From Mycobacteroides chelonae (lineage in GTDB: Bacteria; Actinomycetota; Actinomycetes; Mycobacteriales; Mycobacteriaceae): a DNA stretch of 64,000 bases. Location: contig NZ_CP050145.1 in the NCBI RefSeq assembly GCF_016767715.1, positions 1,612,001 to 1,676,000 of the forward strand. The letters run 5' to 3'. The stretch's first letter is position 1. Every line of letters starts with the position of its first letter. The notes under the pieces were generated by a model. The model was given only the letters and a program-made list of their open reading frames with translations, did not search any database and was not told where the DNA came from. The translations under genes were made by a program, and so were the position numbers. Below are positions 4,081 through 20,254 of this stretch, piece by piece.

Positions 4081-4115
4081 CCCGGCAGGGATCGAACCTG
4101 CGACCTAGGGATTAG
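4081..4115. repeat. attL (left attachment site)
   Basis: Thirty-five bases match 20185-20219 with one mismatch (position 4090, G against A). The last 25 bases (4091-4115) are identical. This is a fragment of the tRNA-Arg(UCU) gene running from the anticodon loop through the T-arm into the acceptor stem. The sequence just outside (4078-4090) would be the displaced original tRNA 3' end. It now pairs imperfectly with the tRNA 5' strand (a C-C mismatch at tRNA positions 3/70), which fits decay after integration. Confidence 0.85.
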
Positions 4116-4233
4116 TGGTGGGGCCTGCTCGGAGGTTCTCTCTGTGTCTCGTAAATTACTGTGGCACAGCTGATTACCTCGCCGTTGGCTTCTCTATCTT
4201 TCTGCCGATTTCCCGGCGATTCTCGCTCATTTC

Positions 4234-4253
4234 CGATGAATAAACGATGGATT
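4234..4253 (+). repeat. candidate integrase arm-type site, left copy
   Basis: A 20-bp sequence with CGATGAATAA and CGATGGATT parts separated by one variable base. The same sequence in the same orientation occurs at 20124-20143 with a single mismatch. Both copies lie just inside the element, about 120 bp from attL and 50 bp from attR. That placement is what integrase arm-binding sites would show, but binding is inference. Confidence 0.5.
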
Positions 4254-4290
4254 TTCAGGTGCTCATGAAGCTGCGGTTGTGTAGGAACGC

Positions 4291-4479
4291 ATGGACAAGC
4301 GTTCTTACAACCGCAAGGAAGCCGCCGGGTACCTCGGCATCAGCCTCTACAAGCTGGACGAGCACAAACGCGCTGGCCACTTGTGCCCTCGGTATGACGG
4401 CACCGTGCCGTTGTACCCCAAGGAGGAACTGGATGCCTTCTTTGCGGGGCTGCCATCGGAACCGCCCAACCGGCGCTAG
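4291..4479 (+). CDS. small helix-turn-helix DNA-binding protein A
   Basis: A 62-residue protein of the MerR/excisionase-like helix_turn_helix_17 type: NRKEAAGYLGIS is the helix-turn-helix entry, followed by the wing segment (LCPRYDGTVPLYPKEELDAF). A second gene begins inside its 3' end and encodes a paralogue with the same core, so the two arose by tandem duplication. Possible roles are directionality factor or transcription regulator near attL. A proper excisionase candidate also exists at 18009-18233, so the role of this protein is open. Confidence 0.75.
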   Translation: MDKRSYNRKEAAGYLGISLYKLDEHKRAGHLCPRYDGTVPLYPKEELDAFFAGLPSEPPNRR

Positions 4480-4717
4480 CCCCGTTTCTCGAAAGACATC
4501 ACCGTCGTCCGATGATGTGGAGGTGGATGACTCACCTCTTGCTCTGGACTCAGAGAACGCTGCAAAACACCTGGGTATCTCGAGGGTGCTGCTGGATCGC
4601 GAGAAGCGCGCCGGCAATATCTGCCCCAAATACGTCGGGACCAAGCCGATCTATCCAATTGGGGAGCTGCAGCGCTGGCTGGATGCATTGCCGTCTGAAC
4701 CGCCAAGCAGGGGCTAA
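4433..4717 (+). CDS. small helix-turn-helix DNA-binding protein B (paralogue of A)
   Basis: I place the start at the ATG at 4433 because a perfect AGGAGG lies at 4421-4426 inside the upstream gene, giving a 94-residue product that overlaps gene A by 47 bases in another frame. Residues from about 36 onward repeat gene A: SENAAKHLGIS, then REKRAGNICPKY, then PIYPIGELQRWLDALPSEPP. The first 35 residues are a Ser/Asp-rich extension absent from gene A. The overlapping strong ribosome site suggests coupled translation. The function is unknown beyond probable DNA binding. Confidence 0.7.
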   Translation: MPSLRGCHRNRPTGASPVSRKTSPSSDDVEVDDSPLALDSENAAKHLGISRVLLDREKRAGNICPKYVGTKPIYPIGELQRWLDALPSEPPSRG

Positions 4718-4759
4718 ATCTCTGTTGCGGCAGGATTCGGTACGTGCCACCGTGGACTG

Positions 4760-4927
4760 ATGCGCAGCGAGCACAAGTCCAACGGCGATGAATGGGATGC
4801 GTTCACCGCCGCGCGGCACATGCTCATCAGCATGCGGCGCGCTGGCGTCCGCAAGAAGCTCAAGAAGCGGTCACACCGCATCGACCGCCGCCGGCAGCGT
4901 CAGCGGCGGTCGGAGAGCGACGAGTGA
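4760..4927 (+). CDS. small basic phage protein, 55 residues
   Basis: The ATG at 4760 begins a 55-residue product with the pattern MRSEHKSNGDEWDAF followed by a very basic tail (RKKLKKRSHRIDRRRQRQRR) and an acidic end. Similar short proteins with the SNGDEWDAF motif recur in actinobacteriophages, with no assigned function. Its stop overlaps the GTG of the next gene (GTGA), which supports it as a real translated gene. The basic tail suggests nucleic-acid binding. Confidence 0.65.
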   Translation: MRSEHKSNGDEWDAFTAARHMLISMRRAGVRKKLKKRSHRIDRRRQRQRRSESDE

Positions 4928-5217
4928 ACCACTACGGCTACAGCGTTCAGTGGTCACCCGAGGACGACGAATACGTCGCCGTGGTCGCAGAGTTTCCGTC
5001 CCTGTCGTGGCTGGATAAAGACCCGGTGAAAGCTCTGACTGGGCTGGTCAAACTCGTTGATGACGTGCGCACGGACATAACCCGACCCAATACAGACAGC
5101 CTCACGCGAACATCTAGATCGCGACTCGAGAGATACGCCATCAAGGGGAAGCTGAACGTGCAGGGGCGTCGTGGTCGGCAGCCTAAGACACAAAAGGACT
5201 GTCAAAACCCAGAATGA
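4924..5217 (+). CDS. HicB-like antitoxin-fold protein, atypical C-terminus
   Basis: A 97-residue protein starting with the GTG that overlaps the previous stop. Residues 1-45 match HicB-like antitoxins (HYGYSVQWSPEDDEYVAVVAEFPSL in pieces, then DPVKALTGLVKLVDDV). The usual C-terminal ribbon-helix-helix is missing: after a short KGKLNV segment the frame ends in a basic Gln/Lys-rich tail. No HicA toxin gene lies beside it. It may be a solitary regulator or a C-terminally damaged antitoxin. Its 3' end overlaps the convergent gene at 5183-5386 by 35 bases. Confidence 0.65.
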   Translation: MNHYGYSVQWSPEDDEYVAVVAEFPSLSWLDKDPVKALTGLVKLVDDVRTDITRPNTDSLTRTSRSRLERYAIKGKLNVQGRRGRQPKTQKDCQNPE

Positions 5218-5386
5218 TCCGTACCGCAACGTCTTCGATGGGTATGTCTTGATGAACCGCGATGAGATCGCGTGCCATCTCTTCTACTTCGCCTTCGTGG
5301 CGCGCTTGGGTTAGTTGGTCAATCTCGGGGACGTTGATCATCCACCACTTGCCGTCGCGGGTTACTTGAATGTCGTAGGTACGCAT
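5183..5386 (-). CDS. small HicB-like/DUF1902-like protein
   Basis: A 67-residue protein with the N-terminal pattern MRTYDIQVTRDGKWWMINVPEIDQ, followed by a Glu-rich helix (EGEVEEMARDLIAVH) and a beta strand. This is the partial RNase-H-like fold of HicB-type proteins without a DNA-binding tail. A GGAAG precedes the ATG. It follows the gene at 5394-5705 by 7 bases on the same strand, so both are probably one transcript. No HicA partner is visible. Annotators usually call this family a hypothetical protein. Confidence 0.65.
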   Translation of the reverse strand: MRTYDIQVTRDGKWWMINVPEIDQLTQARHEGEVEEMARDLIAVHQDIPIEDVAVRIILGFDSPFVS

Positions 5387-5393
5387 GAGCTTC

Positions 5394-5705
5394 CTATTCT
5401 CGCCGATACTGCCAGGGCGTCGGAGTGGATTTGATGATGTAAACCTCTCCGCGGCTCCGGCTCTCCGCTATCAGCTCGCCGCCGAGATACCGGATGCGGA
5501 CCTCCACACCAGGCTCGACCTCAAACCGGGCGTACTCCTTGCCTTCACGCAGGTCGCCGGCGATGGTTTCCGTCCAGACGCCGCGGCCCCAGTTGTGCAG
5601 CACGGTGCACGTTGTCTGACCGGTTGTGCTCTTGTCGACGTGGAGCTTGACCACACCCCGGACGCTAGACGTCGGGTATGACAAAGCCCCTCCGGCACGT
5701 GACAC
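5394..5705 (-). CDS. hypothetical protein
   Basis: I do not recognise this family. The frame encodes up to 103 residues, beta-rich (VEVRIRYLGGELIAES, GEVYIIKSTPT). The start is uncertain: the GTG at 5705 gives the longest product, while an in-frame TTG after GGAGGGG or the GTG before VKLHVDK would be shorter. It lies immediately upstream of the HicB-like gene on the same strand. It has no signal peptide or membrane segment. The position in the cargo end of the element suggests an accessory role. Confidence 0.5.
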   Translation of the reverse strand: MSRAGGALSYPTSSVRGVVKLHVDKSTTGQTTCTVLHNWGRGVWTETIAGDLREGKEYARFEVEPGVEVRIRYLGGELIAESRSRGEVYIIKSTPTPWQYRRE

Positions 5706-5725
5706 CGCCGTGATGAGATGACCGG

Positions 5726-6229
5726 GTGGGCCGCAGTAAACCGCCGCAGGTAGATCCCCTACCGTCCGATGCTCCGCATGAGGTGGAGTTCTTCAGGCGG
5801 CACTGTGACGACGACGCGGCGCAGGCTGCTCCCGGACTCGATGCGCTCCTCGGGTTCCCGGTGAATGTGCGGGCACGGCTGCTTGCAACGCTCGTCGCGG
5901 TGGCCAAGGCCCCGCCGAAGCGGTTCGCAGGCGGAGGCCAGTGGGAAGCTATGCACGGGGACATGACGGGCTACTTCGAGGCCCGTGTCACCTCTGGCAC
6001 CCCGAACGGGAAATGGCACTACCGGTTGTTCTGCATCCTCGACGACACTGCCGAGGGAAAGACCGCAGCGCTGCTTGCGGTGATCGACGGCGCCGCGAAG
6101 CGCTACCAAACCACGTTGCCGGCTTCCCGCTACGTCACGGTTCGCGAGCTGGGTGACGAGTATTTGAAGCGCAACCCGCGATCACTGGCCGCGGCGGAAG
6201 AAATCACCGCGATGATGAGCGCGAACTAG
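5726..6229 (+). CDS. HigB/RelE-superfamily toxin (Gp49-like)
   Basis: A 167-residue protein whose middle resembles phage-derived Gp49-like (HigB) toxins: VRARLLATLVAVAKAP, then WEAMHGDMTGYFEARV and HYRLFCILDD, the usual RelE-fold strands with basic and aromatic residues. The GTG start at 5726 follows a GAGATGA. The gene converges on an XRE antitoxin gene and the two stops share the four bases CTAG, an unusual arrangement because toxin and antitoxin are normally in tandem. The expected action is ribosome-dependent mRNA cleavage, inferred from the family. Confidence 0.75.
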   Translation: MGRSKPPQVDPLPSDAPHEVEFFRRHCDDDAAQAAPGLDALLGFPVNVRARLLATLVAVAKAPPKRFAGGGQWEAMHGDMTGYFEARVTSGTPNGKWHYRLFCILDDTAEGKTAALLAVIDGAAKRYQTTLPASRYVTVRELGDEYLKRNPRSLAAAEEITAMMSAN

Positions 6230-6570
6230 GCGCAGGCGCAGGCCCGCATAGGCTCGGTGATGCGGGTGCGCTCGTCCTCTGACATCGGGGTGAGTGTCAG
6301 CTTCATGCCCAGTGCGGCGGCTACCTCTGCGACGGTGCTGAGAGTCGGGTTCACCGACTCCGAGGAGAGTAGACGCCGAACGGTGCTCGCGTCAGAGCCG
6401 ATCGCACGTGCTAGCGCCGCCTTACTCAGGTTCTCCGAACCGCGAGCCTCGTCGAGCGCATTGATGATGGAGTCGATCGCCTCAATGCGCGCGGACTCCG
6501 CGGCGTATGCACGAGCGAACTCGGGGTTACGGGCCTCGAGTTCGAGCAGCGTGTTGAATGCTTCGTTCAT
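6226..6570 (-). CDS. HigA-like XRE antitoxin
   Basis: A 114-residue protein with a helical N-terminus (about 1-45) and a helix-turn-helix (about 46-95: SKAALARAIGSDASTVRRLLS then NPTLSTVAEVAAALGM in two parts). GGGGAAG precedes the ATG. It faces the HigB-like gene with overlapping stops. Family knowledge says such proteins neutralise the partner toxin and bind their own promoter. The upstream region (6571-6650) is the expected operator, but no clear inverted repeat stands out. A His/Cys-rich end (RACACA) closes the protein. Confidence 0.75.
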   Translation of the reverse strand: MNEAFNTLLELEARNPEFARAYAAESARIEAIDSIINALDEARGSENLSKAALARAIGSDASTVRRLLSSESVNPTLSTVAEVAAALGMKLTLTPMSEDERTRITEPMRACACA

Positions 6571-6984
6571 GGCTTCCCCTCTCTATCTGCTGTGCGGTAT
6601 ACCAACACCGAGACCGTAACATAAATGCCACGGTCGAAAGTAGTGTCTTTGATCACGAGCCAGTGGGGCGGTTCACCACCGCTTCATGCACGTGGTGGCG
6701 GGGGCCCTCCCCTCACTAAGGGCACCACGGCCGCATGACCCCGACGACCAGTCAATCTCGCGGTGTGTACGGAATCTGGGAGATTGGGCGATATATCGGT
6801 AGGGGGCGGGTACCGGATCTCGAGACCAGGGGGGGTGTCCCGCTTGTTACGCTACTTTACTAATTTCCGCAGATCAGGCCGTTTTTGTGGATGTAGCGTG
6901 ACATAAAAATTGTCACGGGAGAGAAATGGCGACTGCAAGCGGGGTCGCGCGGCGAGCGTGCCCCAAGGGAGGGAACGGCCCCCC
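6571..6984. other. 414-bp non-coding stretch between antitoxin and HNH genes
   Basis: No convincing gene is present. It holds the antitoxin promoter region, a 55-bp segment (6731-6785) repeated at 15336-15389, a G7 run near 6829-6835, and a short AT-rich patch (6847-6910). Its position beside the HNH nuclease gene is where many actinophages carry their cos/packaging site, so it is the best place in the element to look for one (inference). Confidence 0.5.
6731..6785 (+). repeat. dispersed repeat, copy 1 (candidate packaging-site sequence)
   Basis: About 45 of 54 positions match 15336-15389 in the same orientation, beginning with 16 identical bases CCGCATGACCCCGACG and including CCAGTCA, CTCGCG and TGTACGG blocks. 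On the minus strand both copies also encode a similar peptide (RE-x-DW-x-SGSCG), but copy 1 has no start codon in that frame. It could be a DNA site or a duplicated gene fragment. Confidence 0.6.
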
Positions 6985-7239
6985 TCACCATTGGCGCGAC
7001 GGCTTACACGACTGGCGGCGTCCAGCCGTGGCGCGGTTGCAGCCCACGTGTTCCGGGCCTTGGTGCCGCGTCCGGTCGTCGTCATCGTGTCCAAGGTCGA
7101 AGTCGGCGTCAGCTGCGATGGGTTTCCCGCAGCGCCAGCAGATGGCCTCGCCTGCTCTGACTACGGTCTCCCAGTGCTTGCGGAGCCGCCGGTGGTGGTA
7201 ACCGTACCCGCGCTGGGTGGTGGTTCCCTTCTTGGGCAT
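6985..7239 (-). CDS. HNH endonuclease
   Basis: An 84-residue HNH nuclease. The first zinc pair is in CWRCG, the HNH core is DLGHDDDDR...[13 protein letters not shown], with the second Cys in GCN. I chose the ATG at 7239 because it overlaps the upstream stop (TGATG) and is preceded by GGAGGTGAT. Small HNH proteins beside the packaging genes of HK97-like phages act with the large terminase in cutting cos DNA. Here no terminase gene is present, so a helper's terminase would have to be used if it acts in packaging. Confidence 0.85.
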
Positions 7240-8451: not shown

Positions 8452-11400
8452 TCACTGCCCCGGCATCTGGTGTTGGGCCATCTGGTGGAAGGCGATGTCC
8501 CGGCCCGTGCCATCTTCGGTGGCGCGCTGATTGTTCACGGTGATGTTCGTGGTGTTACCGCCCTGGCCATTTGGCGCGTTCGGGTCACCTTGGTTCTGGT
8601 TCTGTGGTGCGGTTGACTTGCCCGCCATGTTCGGCAGAGCCGGAGCGGCGCCAGCGATACCGCCCGCTATGCGCGAAATCCACGACTTGTTGGCCAGTTC
8701 GGAGCCGCCCGTCGGTAGGAACGTCTCCATGAGGCCCTGAACACCGATACCCGCTGTCTGACCGGCGTACTCGATAGCGCGGTTCGCGAGCTTCATGCCG
8801 GTCTGTGCGGCCTGTCCGGCACCGGGGGCTAGTAGGTCTAGGCCGCTGGCCGCTAGACCCATGGCGGTGTCAATGGTGCCGCCTGGCGTCATTCCCATCC
8901 CGCCCTTACCGACACCGGATGCTGGTGCTACACCGCCGATCTGGGAAGCGGTCTGCGATGGGCTCCAGCCTTGCGAGGGGCCGGTCATGCCGCCCGTACC
9001 ACCACCGACCGGTACGGGGTTGGTTAGACCGGGGTTGGTGTTGTCCATGCCTGGTGTCGCGTATTGCGTTGCGGGGGCGACCAGAGACGGTGTAGTCATG
9101 CCGCCACCGACGGGCATGTAGTACTGCTTGGGGAATTGCTTGTCTAGGGCGCCTGCTGCGGCGCCTCCGAGCATGGGGCCGTGGCCGCCACCTGATTCGA
9201 AGTTCATGCCGTTGGGCAGGGTCGCGGCCATGTGGCCCTGTTGACCCGGCAGCGGGTTCACCCCGACGTTGAACGCGCCAGGTTGGTATCCGGGCAGGAA
9301 CCCGAGCTTTGCAGCGCTGGCATCAGTGGCGAATGCGGTGGTGTCGAACAGTCTCGCCGGGGACGATTGCCCGCGCTGAAGTACCTCGACTAGGTCCGAC
9401 ACGGCGCCCGAGCAGTCGGCTAAGCCGTTCTGCAGATCCGATGCAGGGGCGTACTTCCCGCCATGTCCCGCGAGTGCGTACATGGCGGCAAGGTTCGGGT
9501 TCAACCCGGGCTGTAATGCCATTGACCCGATGCCCTGGGCTCCCGTGAAAGTATCACTTACTCCGGTGAATTGGGGTCCGAATGCGCCCTGTGCTCCCAG
9601 GATGCCCATCATTCCGTATCCACCCTTGGACGGGTTGGCGGCTGCGATTGCACTGAGCTGGCCCATCATTGGTGCGAATGCGAGGTTTGCGACGAACTTC
9701 ACCAGGTTCTCCGCAAGTCCACCGAGGCCCTTGGATGCGCCGAAGTCGGCGTCCAGTTTGGCGCCGATCTCGCCCATATCCTCGGTGAAGCCCTTCATCT
9801 TCTGCACCGAGCCGCGCTGCGCCTCTACGAGTTTCATCTGTGCCGAGGTGTAGGCGCGCTCGTCTTCCTGGACCTGGTTTTTGGCGCGCATCAGCTCGAG
9901 CTGGTCCGCGTTGCCCTTCTGCTCGAGCTGGATCACTTTCAGCCGGTCCTGCTCGAGAGTGTTCTTAGCGCGGAGCACGCTGGACTCGGCGTCGAACACC
10001 GCCTGTGAGTTGACGGCGCCGCCTACCACCCCGCCGGGGCCGGGGACCATTCCGGGGGTTACGAATGAGGTATTGCCGCCTACCTGGAACTGTGATGGAT
10101 CAACGTATGCGTTGGAGTCGGCTCCGCTGCCCTTCTTGGGCTTGAGGGGCGTGTTCGATACACCCACCCGTGGTGCTGGTGGCAGGTTCCCCAGCGTGGC
10201 AATGACACTGCCGAGTGGGCTGCCGAATGCGTTGAGGGCTGATCCGGTAGCGCCGAGCTGTTGCGGCGTTGTGAGTGCTGTGGGCGAGTTGGCATCCCGG
10301 TATTCGAGGTGGACGACCATGCGTCCATCGGGAAGCTGCTTAGCCTCCGCTCCGAGGGCCTTTAGCCGATTTTTGACCTCGTCTGAGTTGTCCTTAATGA
10401 CAAAGTCTTTCGGCCGATCGGGCAATTCCTCGATCTTGCCCTTGAGATCCTTAATGGCTTCGCCGTTGCGTCGGTACATCTCTTCCTGCGCTTGGGCTTC
10501 CCGCATCGAGTCGGTGAATCCGTCCCGCAATCCGCGAACACCCTCGCGGAGGTGGTCTATTCCGTCGGCGGCGGAGCGCATATTCGTACCGGCGCTGGTC
10601 ATAACATTTGACCACTTCAACAGTGCCCCGCCCGCGGTCTCCATCGCTTCACCGGTGGCCTTCATGCCCGGAATATGTTTGGAGACAGAACCAACCGCCT
10701 GCACCACGCCACCGATGGCCTTGCCGATGTTTCCGAAGACAATCCCCAGCGCATCAGCTAGATAACTACCGGCGTCAAGTATCCGTGCCGTGAATCCAAG
10801 GAACGCATCCGCCCCGGTAGCCATGGCGGAGGTGAAATCGGTGACGAACCCGATGATTTCGGGCTGGTGGGTATTGACCCACTGCACCATCCCGTCGAGC
10901 CCGGAGACTAGCTTGTTGCCGAGGTTCTGGCCGGCGGGCGTGTTGAATACGTCGAACAGTGAGAGTTTCAGCGCCTCGGTGGAGTTCTTCACTCCCTCGA
11001 CGACACCGGGCCATCCCTCCATCTGGGTTCGTGCGGTGGAAGCTGCTGTGCCAACCCGGTTGACTACCCCATAGAGTTCGTCAAACACCTGCACGGAACC
11101 GAGTAGGGGTGCCCGGATTGCGTCTGTACCGAACAGTGTGGCTAGATCCTGTTGGAACACGTCGGTGGGCATGCGGCTCTTAGCGTCCCCGAGTTGCCGG
11201 AACAGCTCTCGCATGCTGATCAACTGGCCGTTGGCGTCGTTGACCTTTAGTCCCAACTCGTCCATGGCCTGTGCCGATTGGTCGCTGGGATTGCGCAGCT
11301 GAACAAGCATCGTCTTGAGTGACGTGCCTGCATCGCTGCCCTTAATGCCCATCTTGGCGAGCATCGCGATAGCTGTTGCGGTCTCTTCGATCGATTGCCC

Positions 11401-12501
11401 GAAACCTGCTGCAACACCGCCGACTTGGGCCAGTGACAGTCCGATGCCTGCGATATCGGCGGATGATCCGTTGGCGGCATTAGCGAGCACGTCCGCGATA
11501 TGTGCCGCGTCGCCCGCCTTGAGCCCGAAGGCGTTCATAGCGTTGGCTTGAATTTCGGCAGCCTGCGCGGCGTCGACCTGTGCGGCGGTGGCCAGCTGCA
11601 TTGTTCCTCGGGCCGAGCCAATTGCCTGGTCTACGGTAAAGCCCGCTTTAGCGAGCTCGGTCATAGCGCGTGCCGCATCCGATGCCGACACACCAGCCAT
11701 GGTCGTATCCGCCCCGAGAGCGCGTGCAGCGGTGGCCATTTGCCTTGTTTGGGCATCGTTGGACTCGGTGACGCCCTTGAAGTTGTTGACCGAGCGAGAG
11801 AAGTCAATGCCCGTGTCCATGACGGACTTGAATCCGGACAACACCATTTCAGCGGCCTTGACCCCCGCCTGAATCAACCCGCCTGCCACAATTGCCGTGG
11901 CAGCACCGGCTACGAATCCCTTGCCCGCAACGGATCCGATACTGGCGAATTGGCCTACTATCCCTGAGCTTTGGCTAGTAAGGCCAGAGAAGACGCCCTG
12001 CCCGCGTGAGCCTTGCGTATCCTGCAATTGGCGGTAGGCGGCAACGGCGTCTTTGAGATTGCGGACCTCTTCGCGTCGGCTGCGATTTAGGTTCTCCGCA
12101 GTGCGGACGATCTGAGTATTAGTGCGGGCCTGCTGCTCTCGCGCTTGGGTAAGCGATTTCTCAGCCGATGCAATTGCGGATGTGTCTCCGGACTTACGCG
12201 CTGCCGCGATCCGCTTTTCATCTGAGGCGATCTTTTCGCCCAATGATGCGGCTTTATCGCGCTGCTGCTGCAATTGTGCTTCTGCGGCTTTAGCTTTCCC
12301 TGCTGAGTCTGCGATTGAATCGTAAGCCTTTTCATAGGCACGGGTCGCGGACTGCATTTTGCTTGACCCGGCAGTGAATTGGCGGGCGAACGCAGCGGAC
12401 GAGTCCCTGCCTGCATTGCCGAAGATCCGCTCAGCCTGATCTGCGGCCCGCTTGAATGACTGGGCGTCGGGCCGTGCCTCAATGGGTAGTAATACGGACA
12501 T
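8452..12501 (-). CDS. phage tail tape-measure protein
   Basis: A 1349-residue protein. Residues about 60-170 form a coiled coil (Ala/Lys/Glu/Gln-rich), followed by hydrophobic GAATAIVAGGLIQAG. The TP901-type core covers about 215-520 (AMTELAKAGFTVDQAI, then GFGQSIEETATAIAMLAKMG). Near the C-terminus an NlpC/P60-like module shows Cys1030 in LADCSGAVSDL and His1090 in GHMAATLP, as in many mycobacteriophage tape measures where it may aid cell-wall crossing. The family sets tail length. Finding it intact without a tail-tube gene is odd. The next gene follows after 2 bases. Confidence 0.92.
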   Translation of the reverse strand: MSVLLPIEARPDAQSFKRAADQAERIFGNAGRDSSAAFARQFTAGSSKMQSATRAYEKAYDSIADSAGKAKAAEAQLQQQRDKAASLGEKIASDEKRIAAARKSGDTSAIASAEKSLTQAREQQARTNTQIVRTAENLNRSRREEVRNLKDAVAAYRQLQDTQGSRGQGVFSGLTSQSSGIVGQFASIGSVAGKGFVAGAATAIVAGGLIQAGVKAAEMVLSGFKSVMDTGIDFSRSVNNFKGVTESNDAQTRQMATAARALGADTTMAGVSASDAARAMTELAKAGFTVDQAIGSARGTMQLATAAQVDAAQAAEIQANAMNAFGLKAGDAAHIADVLANAANGSSADIAGIGLSLAQVGGVAAGFGQSIEETATAIAMLAKMGIKGSDAGTSLKTMLVQLRNPSDQSAQAMDELGLKVNDANGQLISMRELFRQLGDAKSRMPTDVFQQDLATLFGTDAIRAPLLGSVQVFDELYGVVNRVGTAASTARTQMEGWPGVVEGVKNSTEALKLSLFDVFNTPAGQNLGNKLVSGLDGMVQWVNTHQPEIIGFVTDFTSAMATGADAFLGFTARILDAGSYLADALGIVFGNIGKAIGGVVQAVGSVSKHIPGMKATGEAMETAGGALLKWSNVMTSAGTNMRSAADGIDHLREGVRGLRDGFTDSMREAQAQEEMYRRNGEAIKDLKGKIEELPDRPKDFVIKDNSDEVKNRLKALGAEAKQLPDGRMVVHLEYRDANSPTALTTPQQLGATGSALNAFGSPLGSVIATLGNLPPAPRVGVSNTPLKPKKGSGADSNAYVDPSQFQVGGNTSFVTPGMVPGPGGVVGGAVNSQAVFDAESSVLRAKNTLEQDRLKVIQLEQKGNADQLELMRAKNQVQEDERAYTSAQMKLVEAQRGSVQKMKGFTEDMGEIGAKLDADFGASKGLGGLAENLVKFVANLAFAPMMGQLSAIAAANPSKGGYGMMGILGAQGAFGPQFTGVSDTFTGAQGIGSMALQPGLNPNLAAMYALAGHGGKYAPASDLQNGLADCSGAVSDLVEVLQRGQSSPARLFDTTAFATDASAAKLGFLPGYQPGAFNVGVNPLPGQQGHMAATLPNGMNFESGGGHGPMLGGAAAGALDKQFPKQYYMPVGGGMTTPSLVAPATQYATPGMDNTNPGLTNPVPVGGGTGGMTGPSQGWSPSQTASQIGGVAPASGVGKGGMGMTPGGTIDTAMGLAASGLDLLAPGAGQAAQTGMKLANRAIEYAGQTAGIGVQGLMETFLPTGGSELANKSWISRIAGGIAGAAPALPNMAGKSTAPQNQNQGDPNAPNGQGGNTTNITVNNQRATEDGTGRDIAFHQMAQHQMPGQ

Positions 12502-12592: not shown

Positions 12593-14077
12593 CTAGGCAG
12601 TGGTGGCGATGTTCAGGATCTTGAACGCGCCCGGATCCACTACATCCGAACCCACGCGGTAGTACGCGTACCAGCCGCGCTGACCGGTCGGGCGACGGTT
12701 GGCGCCGAACAAATGGGGCAGAAATTCGACACGGAACCCAATTCGGTCCGTGATCACGAAGTTCTCGTAGTCCCCGTACGCCAAGACGAAGTTGTCGGCG
12801 GTGGCCGCTGCGTTCCAGGTGCCCTTCATCGCCTCTGCCTCACCAACAGGCTTTCCGAGCAGGCGTACGGGGCGGTCGCCGCCCAAGTACTCCCACAGTG
12901 CCGCACCGCCATTGGTGTCGAACTGACGAATCTTGTTGTAAAGCAAGTTGTTCGCCATCCACGACGCATTGACGCGGTGCCGCGCCGGTAGAGCGCCCTG
13001 AATGTTGTACAGATCAGCTAGCGAGAAGGTCTCTGGCGTGAGTGCGGCGGTTTCCGCAGACGTACCGTCCAGAGCGGTCACAAGGCCCGTGGGCTGTCCG
13101 ATACCCGTGCCGTTGATAAACGCCTCTGCCTCCAAGGCGTCCTTACCGGCTGCAAGCAGATTGGCGACCTCTTCTGTGACGTTGGCGCCATCCTCGAAGG
13201 CCTCGATCGAGATCGGGACAAAACCGGCTGCCTTGTAGTTCGGGATGGCTGGCTGTCCGAGGGTGGGCGAGTCATCCGACACTTCGACAGCTTCCGCGTC
13301 CCAGGACCACTGCACCGCGCCCGCCGAAACACCGTGCCACTCATCGCCTGTGGCGACAACCTGACGGGCGAACTGACGCATATCGTTGCGTGATCCGGCA
13401 GAGGTCAGAATGACGGTCGGGTCTAGCTGGAACGGCACCAGGTAGCCGCCCGACGAGTCCGTCAGCGACATAGCGCGCGCGGCGTACTCGACATCGCGGA
13501 TTGCCTGAGATTCTCCGGGGGTGAGGGTTTCTCGACGGTTTCTCGCAAGCTTGGACCACGCCCGGAGGTACTCCGGGGTACTGGTGGCCAAGACCTGCTG
13601 AGACAGGCGCCCGTCCTCGTCGTCAAAGCGCTCGATGATCTCGGTAGCAGCAGACCGTACACGGTCGCTGGCACCGGGCATGGCCTCGACGGCAGATAGT
13701 GCGCGGGAGCGGTATTCGGCGGTCAGCTGGTGCCGTTCGAGTCCGAACGGCTGCACACCGCGTAGATCCCACGGGTTTTTGTACTTGCGGGACCGGAAGT
13801 CCTCGGCGCTTCGCGGATCGCCCACCGGGTCGCGGTCGTAGTCGCCAGCGGCGCCGCGCTCCAGTAGCATCCGCCCCGAGGCTGCCCGCCGTACCTCGTC
13901 CAGAGCGGCGTCGTGCCGGAGCCCCTCTTCCCGCAGGACTTCACCACGGTCTTTGAGGGCCTTGAAGCGGAGTGCTTGGGCGTCTGTGAGGTCTCCGTCA
14001 GTGCTGTCGAGAAGCTGCTGCGCTGCGGTGCGCACCTGCTCCACGTCAGTCATGGATTCGATGTCTTTGTAGCTCAT
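12593..14077 (-). CDS. HK97-type major capsid protein
   Basis: A 494-residue protein. Residues about 1-170 are charged and helical, acting as the scaffold-like delta domain removed by the protease. The HK97 fold follows: SLTDSSGGYLVPFQLDP entry, E-loop region, spine helix and the C-terminal YGDYENFVITDRIGFRVEFLP strands. I chose the ATG at 14077; an upstream in-frame TTG at 14089 would overlap the protease gene by 7 bases. It follows the protease directly, the usual order. No portal gene precedes the pair. Confidence 0.92.
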   Translation of the reverse strand: MSYKDIESMTDVEQVRTAAQQLLDSTDGDLTDAQALRFKALKDRGEVLREEGLRHDAALDEVRRAASGRMLLERGAAGDYDRDPVGDPRSAEDFRSRKYKNPWDLRGVQPFGLERHQLTAEYRSRALSAVEAMPGASDRVRSAATEIIERFDDEDGRLSQQVLATSTPEYLRAWSKLARNRRETLTPGESQAIRDVEYAARAMSLTDSSGGYLVPFQLDPTVILTSAGSRNDMRQFARQVVATGDEWHGVSAGAVQWSWDAEAVEVSDDSPTLGQPAIPNYKAAGFVPISIEAFEDGANVTEEVANLLAAGKDALEAEAFINGTGIGQPTGLVTALDGTSAETAALTPETFSLADLYNIQGALPARHRVNASWMANNLLYNKIRQFDTNGGAALWEYLGGDRPVRLLGKPVGEAEAMKGTWNAAATADNFVLAYGDYENFVITDRIGFRVEFLPHLFGANRRPTGQRGWYAYYRVGSDVVDPGAFKILNIATTA

Positions 14078-15627: not shown

Positions 15628-16419
15628 TCACGCGGGCACCTCCGTCCGAGCCAGTAGGGCAGCGGCGATGGCGGCGTGTATGTCAGCGATGGTGACTGCG
15701 ATGGTCTGTAGTGCTTCGGCGTCCGCATCGGTGAGACGGCCCAACGCCTTGTCCCAACGCTTGTCGTAGGTCAGTGCCGTGAGTTCGTCAGTCGCGCCCT
15801 TGAGCGTCACCGTGAGCTGCCTTAGGGCGGTGGGTACTTGGACTGCACGTGCCGGGGGAGTGTCCTCGGTTGGTGCGGTCTCATCTAGTGGCTTGGGCTC
15901 TGGCTTCTTGCGCGGCTTGGGTCTCGGGTACAGCTTCCCGTCGGGTCCAACTGTCTTGTCCGTCGGCGCAGTGCCGCCACAGTCAGGTGTCCCACTATGG
16001 GACACCTCGACAGAATCACCCTCCACCACAACCGGTTCAGGATCAGGTGTCCCATCTTGGGACACCTTCGACAGGACACGCGAGACGGTCGATTTCGATG
16101 CGCCGGTGATGGTTGCGATACTCCGCACACCCATACCCCGATCGGCCAGCAGCTGCGCCATCTCCCTACGCTCGTCGCCGCCGATCTGCCAGCGGTTGCC
16201 GATGCGGTCAGCCAGATACTCTGTCCACGAACGGAACCCCATCGTCAGATGGACTTGCCCCTGCTGCGCCTCATCCAGCAGCCTGTGCAGGATGGTGAGA
16301 CGGTCACCGATGTTCTCGACGGTGCTCTTGATCCGGTTGTCCAGCACCTTGGCCTTGGCGTCATCCAGGGGGACGATGACCTCGACCTCATGCTCGTCTA
16401 CTGCTGCTACTTCACTCAT
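15628..16419 (-). CDS. helix-turn-helix, ParB-like phage DNA-binding protein
   Basis: A 263-residue protein with AGAGGAG upstream of the ATG. Residues about 40-75 match the FRSWTEYLADR region of phage regulators. A ParB/KorB-like helix-turn-helix spans about 92-118 (GMGVRSIATITGASKSTVSRVL). A proline-rich linker (about 120-195) contains two SGTPD or DGTPD repeats encoded by two perfect palindromes, and a helical C-terminal domain (about 205-263) ends it. It follows the replication-type gene. Likely roles are replication initiation, partition or operon control, with the palindromes as its own targets (inference). Confidence 0.7.
   Translation of the reverse strand: MSEVAAVDEHEVEVIVPLDDAKAKVLDNRIKSTVENIGDRLTILHRLLDEAQQGQVHLTMGFRSWTEYLADRIGNRWQIGGDERREMAQLLADRGMGVRSIATITGASKSTVSRVLSKVSQDGTPDPEPVVVEGDSVEVSHSGTPDCGGTAPTDKTVGPDGKLYPRPKPRKKPEPKPLDETAPTEDTPPARAVQVPTALRQLTVTLKGATDELTALTYDKRWDKALGRLTDADAEALQTIAVTIADIHAAIAAALLARTEVPA
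15985..16007. promoter_or_regulatory. perfect palindrome P1 inside the helix-turn-helix gene
   Basis: AGGTGTCCCA, a 3-base centre (CTA), then TGGGACACCT: ten-base arms with no mismatch. The identical arms recur at 16045-16067, exactly 60 bp away. Flanks also agree (TC before, CGACAG after, allowing one inserted base). It lies in the linker-coding part of the gene. A protein-binding site is more likely than a terminator because it is intragenic and paired. Confidence 0.75.
16045..16067. promoter_or_regulatory. perfect palindrome P2 inside the helix-turn-helix gene
   Basis: The same arms as P1 with TCT as centre. Spacing of 60 bp from P1 is close to an integral number of helical turns, so both sites would face a similar side of the DNA. 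The two centres differ while all 20 arm bases are identical, which suggests selection on the arms. Confidence 0.75.
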
Positions 16420-16452: not shown

Positions 16453-17028
16453 CTACTTGTATTCAAGGAATGGGTTCTCTCCGACCCCGTGCCACTCGTC
16501 GCCCGCAGCCAACGGCAAGGCGCTCTGGTGGTCGCCCTTGTCCTTGCCTCGCCTAGCAACTGGCCTAGCCTGTGTGTCCGGTCTGGATTCCGGTCGGACT
16601 TCCACCCGGACATCCGGTGGGACATCCTGCGGACTGTCCGGGTGGGACTCAGCCTCTGCGGCCTTGGCTTCGGCACGGGCCTTGGCTTCAGCACGCTGCT
16701 TGGCCTTCCGTTCCCGGTCGGCAACACGGTTATGGATGCGTGCCTGTTCTGCCGCCTCCAGCGCTTCGCGGGAGCTTTGGGTGGCCTTGAAATCGATGAT
16801 CACCCAGCCCTTATCCAGTGGGCTCCACAGCCCGTTGTCCACGAATGCCTGTGTGGCACCGGCTGCGAATTTCGGTATAGAGGCGAGGTCTTCCGGTTCG
16901 ATCACCCCGTCTGTGCGGTTGGACACCGCATAGACGAGCGAGGTGACAAACGACCTGTAGTGCCCATCGGACAGCCGGGTAAGGCGCCGGTCATGCAGCC
17001 AGCGATCAGGCACCCTTGCATCTGTCAT
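16453..17028 (-). CDS. phage replication-initiation/replisome-organiser-like protein
   Basis: A 191-residue protein. The N-terminal 80 residues (ARVPDRWLHDRRLTRLSDGHY, then SNRTDGVIEPEDLASIP and GWVIIDF) match the winged-helix-like domain found at the start of actinophage replication proteins. A long Lys/Arg/Glu/Ala coiled segment (about 85-125) and a Pro/Asp/Arg-rich disordered tail follow. Its start overlaps the preceding stop by four bases. The tail-coding DNA (about 16571-16650) is rich in short GGAC/GTCC repeats. Replication of the excised element is the inferred role. Confidence 0.6.
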   Translation of the reverse strand: MTDARVPDRWLHDRRLTRLSDGHYRSFVTSLVYAVSNRTDGVIEPEDLASIPKFAAGATQAFVDNGLWSPLDKGWVIIDFKATQSSREALEAAEQARIHNRVADRERKAKQRAEAKARAEAKAAEAESHPDSPQDVPPDVRVEVRPESRPDTQARPVARRGKDKGDHQSALPLAAGDEWHGVGENPFLEYK

Positions 17029-17339
17029 CCAGCTCGCCTCGCCCCATCCCGAGCGTCGGCGCGGTTGTTGATGGCGGTATCTATGGAGTCACGAACTTGC
17101 TCCGCCTGCTCCACTGTCAGGGCGACATCCAGCACTCGCTCACCGTCCACGTTGGCCGACAACAGGATCTCGTCATCGAACTGCCCGGCGAGATCGACCA
17201 TCGCCCAAACGCCGATCTCGGTTCTTTCACCGCCGCGGTGTTGAGCGAGTGTCGTGAGGGTGTCGCTCCAGTGCTCCTCGTCTCGGCGGTTATGTGGTGA
17301 TGTGCACCAGCTGTATGTACATGTCGACACGGCGTTCAC
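17025..17339 (-). CDS. hypothetical phage protein, 104 residues
   Basis: Starts and ends with four-base overlaps in the early operon. The N-terminus has CTYSWCTSPH, a Cys-x5-Cys-like pair of a kind seen in small actinophage proteins, and the C-terminal half has the LTVEQAEQVRDSIDTAI helix. I recognise the general type but not a function. A zinc-binding role for the two Cys and His is possible. Confidence 0.6.
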   Translation of the reverse strand: MNAVSTCTYSWCTSPHNRRDEEHWSDTLTTLAQHRGGERTEIGVWAMVDLAGQFDDEILLSANVDGERVLDVALTVEQAEQVRDSIDTAINNRADARDGARRAG

Positions 17340-17854
17340 CGCCCCAGTTCCATTGCGCGGGCGATGATGTGAATCTGAGCCAGATTGCGCGTGGCCTCAC
17401 CGAGATGGATAAGCGACTGCACTGTGGCTCGCATGTCGTTGTCCTTGAAATCCAGATCAGGGAGGATTTCCAGCAGCTCTCGGTCGGTCATCTCGGTGAG
17501 GTCGAGGGAGCCGCACCACTGGTCCGCCAGATTGGCGGCGTCCGTCAATGCCTTCGCCAGTACTCGGGCGTCGGTAACGGTCAGTGCGCTGTCATAGAGG
17601 TAGACGCGCGGCGACAAACTGGGGTCGTCGGTGACGACAGTTCCGTCCGGGCGCTGAGCAATAACGGCCTGAATGTTGCGGTCTGCCAGATGATCAGGCA
17701 AGGGCATGTCGTTGGACCAGATCAGGCGGGCCAGCAGCCCGTCGCCGTGGTCCTCGAACTGTGCCTCGCTCATCTCCGCGTCAGCGCCAGCGGGGAGCGG
17801 TACGTCAGTCGGCCGGGCATCTTGCCGTTGACTAGTTTGGGATGTAGCGTTCAT
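17336..17854 (-). CDS. hypothetical phage protein, 172 residues
   Basis: I chose the ATG at 17854, which overlaps the preceding TAA (TAATG) and has AAGGAG upstream, over longer frames. The product is acidic with a disordered N-terminus, a central beta region (AVIAQRPDGTVV, SPRVYLYDSAL) and C-terminal helices (LAKALTDAANLADQW). I do not recognise a function. It is part of the tightly coupled early operon. Confidence 0.6.
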   Translation of the reverse strand: MNATSQTSQRQDARPTDVPLPAGADAEMSEAQFEDHGDGLLARLIWSNDMPLPDHLADRNIQAVIAQRPDGTVVTDDPSLSPRVYLYDSALTVTDARVLAKALTDAANLADQWCGSLDLTEMTDRELLEILPDLDFKDNDMRATVQSLIHLGEATRNLAQIHIIARAMELGR

Positions 17855-18009
17855 TAGAGAACTCCTTGATTTTGGAATCGGGATTCGAAACGGGCCTCGC
17901 CCGGCGCGCCAACGCCGGGGACAACGGGGTCCGTTTTCTTTAGGTCTTCGGTGCGGTCGTCGTCGATCAGTCCCATGTCGGGAAAGTGCTCGTGCGGGTA
18001 TGTCCGCAT
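17854..18009 (-). CDS. small hypothetical protein, 51 residues
   Basis: The ATG overlaps the excisionase stop (TGATG) and the TAA overlaps the next ATG (TAATG), so it is coupled on both sides, strong evidence that it is translated. The product is acidic, with GLIDDDRTEDLKKTDP in the middle. There is no recognisable domain. Confidence 0.6.
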   Translation of the reverse strand: MRTYPHEHFPDMGLIDDDRTEDLKKTDPVVPGVGAPGEARFESRFQNQGVL

Positions 18010-18233: not shown

Positions 18234-18270
18234 CTGGATTCTGGCCTTCCTGGATTTGGCTGTTGTGGGT

Positions 18271-18302
18271 ACATACGCAGTTCGTATCGATTCCGCGTAT
18301 GT
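18271..18302. promoter_or_regulatory. operator candidate in the repressor/excisionase divergent promoter
   Basis: ACATACGC at 18271-18278 and GCGTATGT at 18295-18302 form a perfect inverted repeat across 16 bases. A third half-site CGTAT at 18284-18288 makes a second inverted pair with ATACG (18274-18278), and the two CGTAT copies are 12 bp apart, about one helical turn. The block lies between the two divergent start codons, where a lysogenic repressor would bind. Confidence 0.55.
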
Positions 18303-18359
18303 TCACTCAGGCTACGCCGATCGCGTACAGTCCCGCAATATCCCGGTAAGCTGCGTGTC

Positions 18360-18974
18360 ATGACGCAACCAAGTTGGGCGGAAGGCCAGGCGGCACAGAT
18401 CGCGGCCGAGGTTCGACGGCTCCGGGGAAAGAGGTCAGCGCAGTGGTTGTCCGACCGGACGATGGAGCTCGGCCATACCGTCACCCGGTCTGTTATTACG
18501 GACCTGGAGAACGGTCGCCGGAAGTACGTGACAATCGCTGAGCTGATCGTCTTGGCTGCGGCGCTGGATACCTATCCAATCGCCCTGTTGTATCCGCCCC
18601 CATACGGAGAACTGGTGCGGATCCTGCCGAATGTGGCAGCCGGGCGACCGGAACAGTTATCTGCTGGGTTGCCGAAACATGATGCTGTTGAATGGTTCTC
18701 GGGGAACGAGCCCACCGCCGAGATGGTCCATAGGGTGGTCGTCGGTGGCGACAAGAATGGACTAAAAGAGAATGTCCAGGCCTTCCGGGCTGCCGGCGAA
18801 ATTCCTTCGCTTGAGAGGCAATTAGCGGAGTCGTCAGCTCACTACGCGGACAGGTTTACTCAGTATGGAGCCGATGACCCCGTTGCGGGGGCGCTGTTTG
18901 AGCAGATCGAATTCCTGCGGGGTCACTTGAGCGATCTTCGCGAGATGGCTGGGATGGAAGGCGATGGCGGGTAG
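18360..18974 (+). CDS. XRE-family repressor-like regulator
   Basis: A 204-residue protein. Residues about 8-75 hold the helix-turn-helix (QWLSDRTMELGHTVTRSVITDLENGRR in segments), as in immunity-type regulators of actinobacterial integrated elements. The C-terminal part is helical with a probable coiled segment (SLERQLAESSAHYADRF; EFLRGHLSDLREM). It overlaps the integrase start by 11 bases, so the two are co-transcribed, and it diverges from the excisionase operon. Control of the lysogenic state is inferred from position. Confidence 0.75.
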   Translation: MTQPSWAEGQAAQIAAEVRRLRGKRSAQWLSDRTMELGHTVTRSVITDLENGRRKYVTIAELIVLAAALDTYPIALLYPPPYGELVRILPNVAAGRPEQLSAGLPKHDAVEWFSGNEPTAEMVHRVVVGGDKNGLKENVQAFRAAGEIPSLERQLAESSAHYADRFTQYGADDPVAGALFEQIEFLRGHLSDLREMAGMEGDGG

Positions 18975-20133
18975 GCCTCCGCTGCGGATTGGGCAGCACG
19001 GAAAGATCACGCGAACGGCATTGGGCGGGGGAGTGTGGTTGGCGCGCTGCCGATTCCGGGACTCCGATGGGGTTACTAGAATTGTGGAGAGGCGCGGCCC
19101 TGAGGGCGATCAGCGCGGCAAGGGCGCTGAGGATGCACTCATTGAGGCTCTGGCCACACGTAGGCCGCCGGGGTCCGCGGATGAGATCACACTCGACTCG
19201 AAGGTGATTGATCTTGTGAATGCTCATATCGATCGCCTCGAAGAAGACGGACGAGCAACGCGGACCGTCGACACGTATCGCTATGCATCATCCAAGTTGT
19301 CCAAGTTTCTAGGTGGTGTCCGGGTGGGGGAGGCGACGGCTGCTCGATGCGACGCAGCGATTAGGTCAATGAAGACAGCGCACGGCCCAACCATGGCACG
19401 GCAGTCACGGACGATCATGAAGGGCGGCCTGCAGCTTGCGGTGATGGCGACTGTGCTGGGTGCCAATCCGGTCCGCGATGTGTCACCGATCAGCGCGGGG
19501 GAATCGACCAAGGGGGCCGCTGGGCTTACCCGTGAGCAACTGAAAGGACTGCTGTCTAGCATCCGTGAGTCTGAGTACTGTCGATCTCGAGACCTATCTG
19601 ACCCCATCGTCATCTTCATCGCCACAGGCCTGCGGCGGTCGGAACTCTTGGGCCTACGGTGGGCGGATTTCAATGAGAAGCAAAGAACCCTCACCGTCAG
19701 CGGCAATGTGGTCAGGGTTGCGGGTAAAGGGTTGGTTCGGTTCGACGGTGCGAAGACCAAGCTGAGTCGAAGAACCGTGTCGCTGCCCAAATTCGCTGTT
19801 GAGGTCCTATGCCGGCGCCGTCAGGTTCCGTTCGTAGGGGAGCAGGATGTGATCTTCGCGTCGTCGACAGGAACGCTCCGAGACCCGGACAACTTCGGTG
19901 CGCAGTGGCGCAAGGTGCGTGATGACCTCGGGGTAGCTGATGTCACCAGCCACTCATTCCGAAAGTCCATCGGTACCCTGATCGATGAAGACGGGATGTC
20001 GGCCCGCGTGGGGGCTGACCAGCTGGGACACTCCAAGGTATCGATGACGCAAGACCGCTACATGGTTCGTGGACGTGTGCACAAAGAGGTTGCCGAGATG
20101 CTCGATCGAGAGCTTGGCATAAGCGATGAATAA
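18964..20133 (+). CDS. int: tyrosine integrase
   Basis: A 389-residue site-specific recombinase. An N-terminal arm-binding region (about 1-75), a SAM-like core-binding domain (about 78-175) and the catalytic domain (about 185-375) are present. The catalytic set is visible: Arg in ATGLRRSELLGL (about 224), Lys265, His330 and Arg333 in HSFRKS, His356 in LGH and Tyr366 in DRYM. It ends 61 bp from the att core in tRNA-Arg, the normal layout. A candidate arm-type site overlaps its stop codon. Confidence 0.95.
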   Translation: MAGRPPLRIGQHGKITRTALGGGVWLARCRFRDSDGVTRIVERRGPEGDQRGKGAEDALIEALATRRPPGSADEITLDSKVIDLVNAHIDRLEEDGRATRTVDTYRYASSKLSKFLGGVRVGEATAARCDAAIRSMKTAHGPTMARQSRTIMKGGLQLAVMATVLGANPVRDVSPISAGESTKGAAGLTREQLKGLLSSIRESEYCRSRDLSDPIVIFIATGLRRSELLGLRWADFNEKQRTLTVSGNVVRVAGKGLVRFDGAKTKLSRRTVSLPKFAVEVLCRRRQVPFVGEQDVIFASSTGTLRDPDNFGAQWRKVRDDLGVADVTSHSFRKSIGTLIDEDGMSARVGADQLGHSKVSMTQDRYMVRGRVHKEVAEMLDRELGISDE

Positions 20134-20143
20134 GCGATGGATT
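20124..20143 (+). repeat. candidate integrase arm-type site, right copy
   Basis: Matches 4234-4253 with one mismatch and in the same orientation. It overlaps the integrase stop codon and lies 52 bp inside attR. See the left copy. Confidence 0.5.
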
Positions 20144-20180
20144 GCATCTATATACGCTTCTAGAAATATGTTCTGAGCTG

Positions 20181-20254
20181 CGCCCCCGGCAGGAATCGAA
20201 CCTGCGACCTAGGGATTAGAAGGCCCTTGCTCTATCCAACTGAGCTACGGAGGC
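20181..20254 (-). tRNA. tRNA-Arg (anticodon TCT)
   Basis: A 74-base cloverleaf on the minus strand: acceptor GCCTCCG with CGGGGGC, D-arm GCTC/GAGC, anticodon loop CTTCTAA with TCT at 34-36, T-arm GCAGG/CCTGC. The last anticodon-stem pair (31-39) is C-T, as I read it. CCA is not encoded. The gene remains functional because the integrated element rebuilds its 3' end. Confidence 0.93.
20185..20219. repeat. attR (right attachment site)
   Basis: Partner of attL. The identical 25-bp core is 20195-20219 and lies in the anticodon loop to T-arm part of tRNA-Arg. The element therefore supplies the last 14 bases of the tRNA gene (20181-20194) and restores a fully paired acceptor stem. Confidence 0.85.

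What the first reader, a model, noticed from the sequence alone, without database searches (positions are those of the whole stretch)
4091..20219. Possible satellite that carries capsid, protease and a tape-measure gene but no portal, terminase or tail tube
Seen: an intact 16.1-kb integrated element with HK97 protease, capsid, a 1349-residue tape-measure protein, a tail-type protein and an HNH nuclease. A portal, terminase, connectors, tail tube and lysis genes are absent. Known: phiRv1/phiRv2 and capsid-forming satellites carry capsid and protease and use a helper for the rest, but tape-measure genes are not part of that usual set. Inference: this element may redirect both capsid size and tail length of a helper phage. 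The overlap-coupled, uninterrupted gene order argues against random decay; a single deletion in a prophage ancestor is the main alternative.
Basis: partly seen in the sequence, partly recalled or inferred. Interest (0 to 1): 0.8.

Follow-up and report, generated by a model that had tools for sequence, protein, structure and literature searches.

The report
Satellite carrying its own tape measure
A 16-kb mobile element in a mycobacterium carries its own virus-shell genes and its own tail-ruler gene but appears to borrow the rest of the virus particle from a helper phage, and the same odd combination turns up in several related elements.

Summary
An integrated element (att 4076-4115 / 20180-20219, in tRNA-Arg) encodes integrase, repressor, protease, HK97 capsid, a 1349-aa tape measure protein (TMP), a minor tail protein and HNH. 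No portal, large terminase, connector, tail tube, tail chaperone or lysis gene was recognised; no portal or large terminase was found in the host genome with the queries tried. It is not a one-off deletion: relatives L122-L125 keep the same capsid-TMP-minor tail block, three of them with a distant integrase (29%), and TMP dN/dS against satellite L123 is 0.06. Eight further elements (six mycobacterial, one Gordonia, one uncultured actinobacterium) carry capsid plus TMP of other phage lineages, one with TMP upstream of capsid. Of 55 capsid places in 396 mycobacterial genomes: 7 TMP satellites, 29 TMP-less, 10 prophages, 4 cut, 5 broken. Best explanation: a satellite building chimeric particles (own shell and TMP; helper portal, motor, tail tube). 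Tail-length redirection is not supported here: TMP length equals that of its closest prophage relative. Satellite TMPs and chimeric tails are in print for Vibrio PLEs and putative tmp genes for some cf-PICIs (2026), so this is a new variant.

The parts
4076..4115 (.). left attachment site, copy of the tRNA-Arg 3' part
4291..4479 (+). excisionase-like HTH protein, 62 aa (a second excisionase-like HTH in frame 4247-4717)
   Evidence: PHROGs; identical protein in L123
4760..4927 (+). 55-aa protein, unknown (phrog_16066)
   Evidence: 98% in L123
5183..5386 (-). HicB-like antitoxin, 67 aa
   Evidence: phrog_8245
5394..5705 (-). unknown, accessory
   Evidence: 78% in L123
5783..6229 (+). unknown, possible toxin partner of the XRE protein (inference)
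   Evidence: no family hit
6226..6570 (-). XRE-type HTH regulator/antitoxin
   Evidence: HTH_3
6985..7239 (-). HNH endonuclease, 84 aa
   Evidence: phrog_1808; also in L123, L124, L125, not found in L122
7239..8450 (-). minor tail protein, 403 aa (beta repeats plus C-terminal beta domain)
   Evidence: prophiGD02-2 gp102 55% full length; AF2
8452..12501 (-). tape measure protein, 1349 aa
   Evidence: prophiGD02-2 gp96 79.6%; dN/dS 0.06 against L123
12502..12592 (-). 91-nt capsid-TMP spacer with predicted hairpin
12593..14077 (-). HK97-fold major capsid protein, 494 aa
14083..14622 (-). prohead protease, satellite type, 179 aa
14767..15051 (-). conserved satellite protein, 94 aa
   Evidence: 55-58% in TMP-less satellites L040, L070
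15048..15293 (-). conserved satellite protein, 81 aa, all-helical prediction
15628..16419 (-). HTH DNA-binding protein, 263 aa
16453..17028 (-). replication-initiation-like protein, 191 aa
   Evidence: phrog_2447
17025..17339 (-). small early gene, unknown
   Evidence: no hit
17336..17773 (-). small early gene, unknown
   Evidence: no hit
17854..18009 (-). small early gene, 51 aa, unknown
   Evidence: no hit; 76% in L123
18009..18233 (-). excisionase/regulator-like HTH, 74 aa
   Evidence: phrog_66; 56% in L040
18360..18974 (+). repressor-like HTH protein
   Evidence: HTH_3 below cut-off; 92% in L123
18964..20133 (+). tyrosine integrase
   Evidence: 66% L040, 63% L059
20180..20219 (.). right attachment site inside tRNA-Arg(tct) 20180-20254

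Best explanation
The element is a phage satellite that makes a hybrid particle. On helper infection it excises and replicates, makes its own protease, capsid, TMP, a minor tail protein and HNH, and takes portal, terminase, connectors, tail tube, tail chaperone, tail tip and lysis from a helper with a compatible tail, most plausibly a phage of the prophiGD02-2 lineage, in particular the L157/L206 type that has an Eyre-like capsid and portal. Its TMP replaces the helper's inside a helper-type tail of about normal length, as Vibrio PLEs do. Shown here: gene content, recurrence, purifying selection, repeated exchange of TMP between phages and satellites, no portal or large terminase in the host genome by the queries tried. 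Inferred: induction, packaging, particle composition, helper identity.
For: (1) Same capsid-[91-97 nt hairpin spacer]-TMP-minor tail block in L122, L123 and L124/L125 (identical TMP); L123 has integrase 96% identical, L122/L124/L125 only 29%. HNH is in the window, L123, L124 and L125. (2) Window-L123 TMP: 1349 codons, 93.4% aa identity, dS 0.63, dN/dS 0.06, one gap column; capsid, TMP and minor tail share dS 0.61-0.63 while integrase is 0.23. (3) TMP right after capsid in L051, L052, L053, L059, L060, L063, one gene after it in Gordonia L077, upstream of it in L083. (4) TMP tree of 27 rows: 7 satellite/phage label changes, 7 forced by supported branches. (5) Satellite backbone (integrase 66%, protease 61%, 14767 gene 55%) shared with TMP-less satellite L040. 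(6) No portal/TerL hit in own genome; no second intact TMP of this kind. (7) Prophages with 92-100% identical connector, tube and chaperone genes carry either a GD02-type capsid (L204, portal 88% to GD02) or an Eyre-type capsid (L157/L206, portal 70% to Eyre), so such tails already occur with a capsid of this branch. (8) PLE precedent: satellite TMP incorporated, TMP deletion cuts transduction 96-99.9% (PMC12987554).
Against: No induction, particle or excision data. No packaging site shared with phages found in the one stretch tried (6571-6984). In the prophages portal changes together with capsid, so the helper must have a portal that accepts this capsid; untested. TMP and capsid are not always inherited together: L122-L124 have dS 0.35 for capsid, 0.22 for minor tail but 0.79 for TMP. 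No tail chaperone was found, so reliance on the helper's is assumed.
Confidence: 0.68

Rival explanations
1. Reduced prophage: ancestors were full prophages that lost portal, terminase and the connector-to-chaperone segment by deletion, and the remnant persists with or without mobility.
For: L052 capsid and TMP are both closest to one prophage (L067); an L157/L206-like prophage has both an Eyre-type capsid and a GD02-type TMP; gene order mostly follows phage order.
Against: Recurs with intact frames in many elements; TMP is far closer to phage (path 0.24-0.26) than capsid is (0.92), so one event from one phage would need a later capsid swap; protease and integrase belong to the TMP-less satellite type; L083 has TMP upstream of capsid; TMP dN/dS 0.06.
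Confidence: 0.14
2. TMP as a weapon: the element expresses TMP and minor tail protein mainly to poison assembly of a helper or rival phage, not to build its own tails.
For: Other defences act on TMP (Tab, PMC10884400; Rta, PMC12987554); the best phage matches of the four satellite TMPs searched come from phages of the same host genus.
Against: TMP is full length, 84-100% identical to L123 in every 75-residue bin, and as long as phage TMP; a decoy would hardly need that. That TMP comes with capsid is no argument, because these elements were found through the capsid; TMP without capsid was not looked for.
Confidence: 0.12
3. TMP and minor tail protein chosen for cell entry: they set the DNA-entry route or host preference of satellite particles. 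Compatible with the best explanation; it answers why rather than how.
For: A minor tail protein accompanies TMP in the window group and in L051 (phrog_7565); HK97 TMP is linked to inner-membrane entry factors (recalled; title seen in the reference list of PMC10884400).
Against: No minor tail gene was recognised next to TMP in L053, L059, L060, L063 and L077 with the panel used.
Confidence: 0.3

Closest known systems
PLE satellites of Vibrio cholerae (Mathur et al., Nature 2026, PMC12987554; outline, abstract, sections 6, 8, 9 and passages seen)
   Same: Satellite-encoded TMP that would sit in an otherwise helper-made tail; some tail partners also encoded
   Different: PLEs use helper capsid, encode a tail chaperone and sometimes a baseplate hub, and serve a contractile phage; this element encodes capsid and protease and no recognised chaperone
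cf-PICIs (capsid-forming PICIs; seen only as a reference title and in the ED Fig. 10 legend of PMC12987554)
   Same: Own capsid; the legend reports putative tmp genes in a sampling of cf-PICIs
   Different: cf-PICIs as recalled carry a full capsid and packaging set and need only tails; here portal and terminase were not found
Candidate mycobacterial PICIs including phiRv1/phiRv2 (PMC10654092, passages seen)
   Same: Integrase plus capsid; protease, 14767-type gene and integrase related to TMP-less satellites found here
   Different: TMP-less elements found here carry another capsid branch (20 of 20 placed form one clade); 'tape measure' and 'minor tail' do not occur in that paper's main text
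Prophage prophiGD02-2 and kin of M. abscessus
   Same: Closest lineage of TMP (79.6%, same length) and minor tail protein (55%); HNH 59-63%
   Different: Full phage with portal, terminase, connectors, tube, chaperones and lysis genes

Membership tests
Phage satellite (PICI-like, broad sense) | Integrated element with own integrase and regulator, structurally incomplete | tested here: met
Phage satellite (PICI-like, broad sense) | Induced and transferred by a helper phage | not testable with these tools
   no experiment
cf-PICI | Own capsid gene | tested here: met
cf-PICI | Own portal and terminase, only tails taken from helper (recalled) | tested here: not met
   none found by Pfam/PHROGs or six-frame search; sequence-based, not structural
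PLE | Own TMP with tail chaperone | tested here: not met
   TMP yes, chaperone none found
PLE | Uses helper capsid | tested here: not met
   own capsid
TMP-less mycobacterial capsid satellites (phiRv-like by recall) | Capsid in the clade of the TMP-less satellites | tested here: not met
   capsid tree: the window lies with phage and TMP-satellite capsids; phiRv1/phiRv2 themselves were not placed
TMP-less mycobacterial capsid satellites (phiRv-like by recall) | Satellite-type protease and integrase | tested here: met
   61% and 66% to L040
Complete prophage | Portal, large terminase, tail tube | tested here: not met
Decaying prophage | Disrupted frames or relaxed selection | tested here: not met
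   intact frames; against L123 dN/dS is 0.06 for TMP, 0.24 for capsid, 0.24 for minor tail

The most novel reading that the evidence does not exclude
Actinobacteria host a class of satellites that encode the two body-plan proteins of the virion, shell and tape measure, and borrow interfaces and motors. The TMP is repeatedly recaptured from phages of the local host genus, so each satellite stays matched to the helper tail it parasitises. TMP carriage goes with phage-type capsids (10 of 12 non-prophage elements on that side of the capsid tree, the other 2 cut by a contig end) and not with the TMP-less capsid clade (0 of 20, 1 more cut).
Probability: 0.5. Interest if true: 0.78.

Novelty: new variant of a known kind. 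Interest (0 to 1): 0.64.

Why it matters
It would take chimeric-tail parasitism from Vibrio PLEs to Actinobacteria and to satellites that also make their own shell. Repeated TMP capture offers a natural test of why a satellite needs its own tape measure (tail dedication, escape from a helper factor, or cell entry), because tail length should not change here relative to the closest phage. It also gives a concrete helper hypothesis (the prophiGD02-2 / L157 lineage) and a gene-order signature, capsid directly followed by TMP, for finding more.

Tried and rejected
Tail-length redirection: rejected relative to the closest phage, because TMP length is equal. Other satellites may differ: L059/L060 (1136/1170 aa) are shorter than sister prophage L064 (1235), L051 (1526) shorter than L054 (1955), L077 (1344) shorter than Eyre (1449). 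Shared packaging site: noncoding 6571-6984 had no phage match at E up to 1; no other stretch was tried. Resident helper: none by the portal, TerL and TMP queries tried in G000; G200, host of L051, has one terminase-like hit on another contig. The portal query had no positive control; the TerL query had four (G100, G377, G355, G087), all found. Post-capsid hairpin as a satellite invention: rejected, phages have it too, and L052's spacer folds weakly. Minor tail fold: N-terminal half low confidence, Foldseek best E 0.042, VIA-align matches mostly span residues 1-203, so inconclusive. TMP-like hits in TMP-less loci L263 and L266 are 228- and 207-aa proteins matching one phage TMP only and were not counted; a six-frame search of the 29 TMP-less loci with 27 TMPs gave only that L263 stretch, and with 45 portal/terminase/connector/tail/lysis references nothing. 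The same 45 references against 12 TMP satellites gave only a weak lysin match inside the L053 TMP. L035's 1064-aa gene downstream of capsid had no TMP hit. Defence library: only weak HTH matches. TMP trees mix mosaic domains; 1477 of 3047 columns kept; 74 of 500 label shuffles were as low as the observed 7 changes, so satellite TMPs are not clearly clustered.
Full report
WHAT IS THERE. The element lies between 25-bp exact repeats (4091-4115, 20195-20219), 95% alike over 4076-4115 / 20180-20219, at the 3' part of tRNA-Arg(tct). The host genome is a single contig of 5,061,177 bp; the closest named minor-tail proteins come from Mycobacteroides chelonae, so I infer the chelonae-abscessus group. 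Integrase and repressor read rightward; the early genes, protease, capsid, TMP, minor tail protein and HNH read leftward. No portal, large terminase, connector, tail tube, chaperone or lysis gene was recognised by PHROGs (21 called genes and three further ORFs), Pfam (20 proteins) or a six-frame search with 45 reference proteins from four phages.

ORIGIN OF THE PARTS. TMP is 79.6% identical to gp96 of prophiGD02-2 and has the same length, 1349 aa. The minor tail protein is 55% identical over its full length to gp102 of the same prophage; there gp97-gp101 lie between the two genes, here none. The capsid's best phage match is Gordonia phage Eyre and kin (60-64%), and in the tree it sits at path 0.92 from the nearest phage capsid, against 0.24-0.26 for TMP. 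Protease (61%), integrase (66%), the 14767-15051 gene (55%) and the 18009-18233 gene (56%) match a TMP-less satellite, L040. A single deletion in one prophage does not give this mixture easily.

CLOSE RELATIVES. In IMG/VR, L122 (15.8 kb), L123 (16.1 kb) and L124/L125 (identical TMP) share capsid (74-80%), TMP (82-93%) and minor tail protein, with the same junctions: 91-97 nt between capsid and TMP with a conserved hairpin, and TMP immediately followed by the minor tail gene. L123 shares integrase (96%) and repressor (92%); the integrases of L122, L124 and L125 are only 29% identical. HNH is present in L123 (87%), L124 and L125 (65%) and was not found in L122. Between window and L123 the structural genes have equal dS (capsid 0.61, TMP 0.63, minor tail 0.62) and dN/dS of 0.24, 0.06 and 0.24; integrase has dS 0.23 and dN/dS 0.08, repressor 0.37 and 0.12, HNH 0.71 and 0.17 (Nei-Gojobori). 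TMP is the lowest of the six genes compared in this pair, integrase close behind; protease could be compared only with L122 (0.15). So in this pair the block diverged as a unit, apart from the integration genes. In L122-L124 it did not: dS is 0.35 for capsid, 0.22 for minor tail and 0.79 for TMP, which points to TMP exchange. Several other pairs are near synonymous saturation. Differences fixed between the four satellite TMPs and three prophage TMPs (46) lie only in residue bins 1-75, 676-825 and 976-1200.

RECURRENCE. Capsid search of 396 mycobacterial genomes: 49 with a match, 58 rows, 55 distinct places. I read all 55 (40, and the window). By a local reference panel (phmmer): 7 TMP satellites (window, L051, L052, L053, L059, L060, L063), 10 prophages, 29 capsid elements without TMP, 4 cut by a contig end at the capsid (L055, L065, L069, L260), 5 with broken or partial capsid (L266-L270). 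The 29 were checked again in six frames. L052's TMP is itself cut by the contig end at 583 aa. Of 125 loci from the genome and viral collections (45; 80, the best of 511), sorted 97 as phages without the signature and printed 28, three of them without a called capsid. Of those 28, eight have capsid directly followed by TMP: L122-L125, plus L089, L093, L105, L116, whose contig lengths equal those of L051, L059, L052, L053. Two further kinds appeared: L077 (Gordonia tangerina; one 96-aa gene between capsid and TMP) and L083 (uncultured actinobacterium; TMP upstream of capsid, contig ends after capsid). Named contigs include M. interjectum and M. parafortuitum. Att repeats: L063 39 bp in tRNA-Gly, giving 15.5 kb; L077 22 bp in tRNA-Arg, giving 14.7 kb; none of at least 16 nt in seven other loci tested, some of whose ends are not held.

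REPEATED CAPTURE. In the TMP tree (27 rows, 11 satellite) the satellite label needs 7 changes, 7 forced by supported branches; a change may be a gain or a return to phage, and L063 sits on a long branch. The window, L122, L123 and L124 form one clade beside prophiGD02-2 and L206; L059/L060 sit beside prophage L064, L051 beside L054, L077 beside Gordonia phage Eyre, L083 with L056/L126. Best phage matches share the host genus: Mycobacterium phages for the window, L063 and L059, Gordonia phages for L077; the phage collection is rich in both. In the capsid tree (49 rows) the 20 TMP-less satellites placed (of 29) form one clade (100/100), and the 10 TMP satellites placed lie among phage capsids, with 5 changes, 4 forced. 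Of the three cut loci placed, L055 and L065 fall on the phage side and L069 on the TMP-less side, TMP unknown. The association is strong but rests on one TMP-less clade. L077, L083 and L125 were not in that tree.

HELPER. No portal or large terminase was found in the own genome (GD02 portal, PF05133, PF04860, PF03354, and Eyre TerL, which matched all four positive-control genomes), and no second intact TMP of this kind (one short fragment with stops). Other terminase and TMP families were not tried. Prophage L157/L206 (one contig) combines an Eyre-type capsid (60% to the window) and a portal 70% identical to Eyre's and 67% to GD02's with GD02-type terminase, connector and tail genes (92-99%); L204 has nearly the same tail genes with the GD02 capsid and a portal 88% identical to GD02's. 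So tails of this lineage occur with capsids of both branches, portal changing with capsid, and an L157-type phage is the best helper candidate.

MECHANISM. Best reading: a chimeric particle, own shell and TMP in a helper tail. Close precedent: PLE satellites encode TMP and chaperone, place their TMP in otherwise ICP1 tails, and lose 96-99.9% of transduction without it (PMC12987554, sections 6, 8, 9 seen). [quoted passage not shown] 10, legend only seen). Its text has no hit for mycobacteria or actinobacteria. The mycobacterial PICI survey PMC10654092 (passages seen) does not mention tape measure or minor tail in its main text; its supplementary element lists were not available to me, so these elements may be listed there as candidate PICIs. 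Paper searches for the combination; open-licence full texts only. The capsid-TMP spacer hairpin also follows capsid genes in phages; I infer that it keeps TMP output below capsid output. L051 adds a small terminase subunit (phrog_83, 2e-40) and a minor tail protein, so packaging specificity may be carried differently in each element.

LIMITS. Absence of portal and terminase rests on sequence profiles and similarity, not folds. Gene calls are from a simple script that missed some genes (HNH in L124/L125, the portal in L157), hence the six-frame checks. Classes rest on a panel of four annotated phages plus the window's own proteins. Elements were found through the capsid, so TMP satellites without capsid would be missed. 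No experimental data.

Noticed in passing
L083:5079-11287: TMP gene upstream of the capsid gene in a satellite-like contig of an uncultured actinobacterium, the reverse of phage order
   Followed up: partly
L157/L206 versus L204: Prophages with nearly identical terminase, connector and tail genes carry two different portal-protease-capsid cassettes (Eyre-type and GD02-type)
   Followed up: partly
L051:3837-4340 and 1501-3837: TMP satellite of M. interjectum also carries a terminase small subunit and a 778-aa minor tail protein downstream of TMP
   Followed up: partly
L122:14431-15843, L125:15090-16502: 100-aa and 369-aa genes near the element end that look like the ESX-secreted toxin (PEST) cassettes described for mycobacterial prophages; judged by eye only
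   Followed up: no
window 44199-44489: tRNA-Gly(tcc) next to tRNA-Pro(tgg), the same tRNA pair beside which the L063 satellite is integrated; no element was looked for here
   Followed up: no
window 3410-4018: Gene just left of the element in a stretch of lower GC (0.56), no defence-family match; possibly another insertion beside the same tRNA site
   Followed up: no
L059, L060, L063, L123, L124 upstream of capsid: Two protease-like genes in a row: a diverged satellite type and a shortened phage type matching only the protease part of the GD02 MuF fusion
   Followed up: no
L048:10852-11253: TMP-less capsid satellite with a small-terminase-like gene directly after capsid
   Followed up: no
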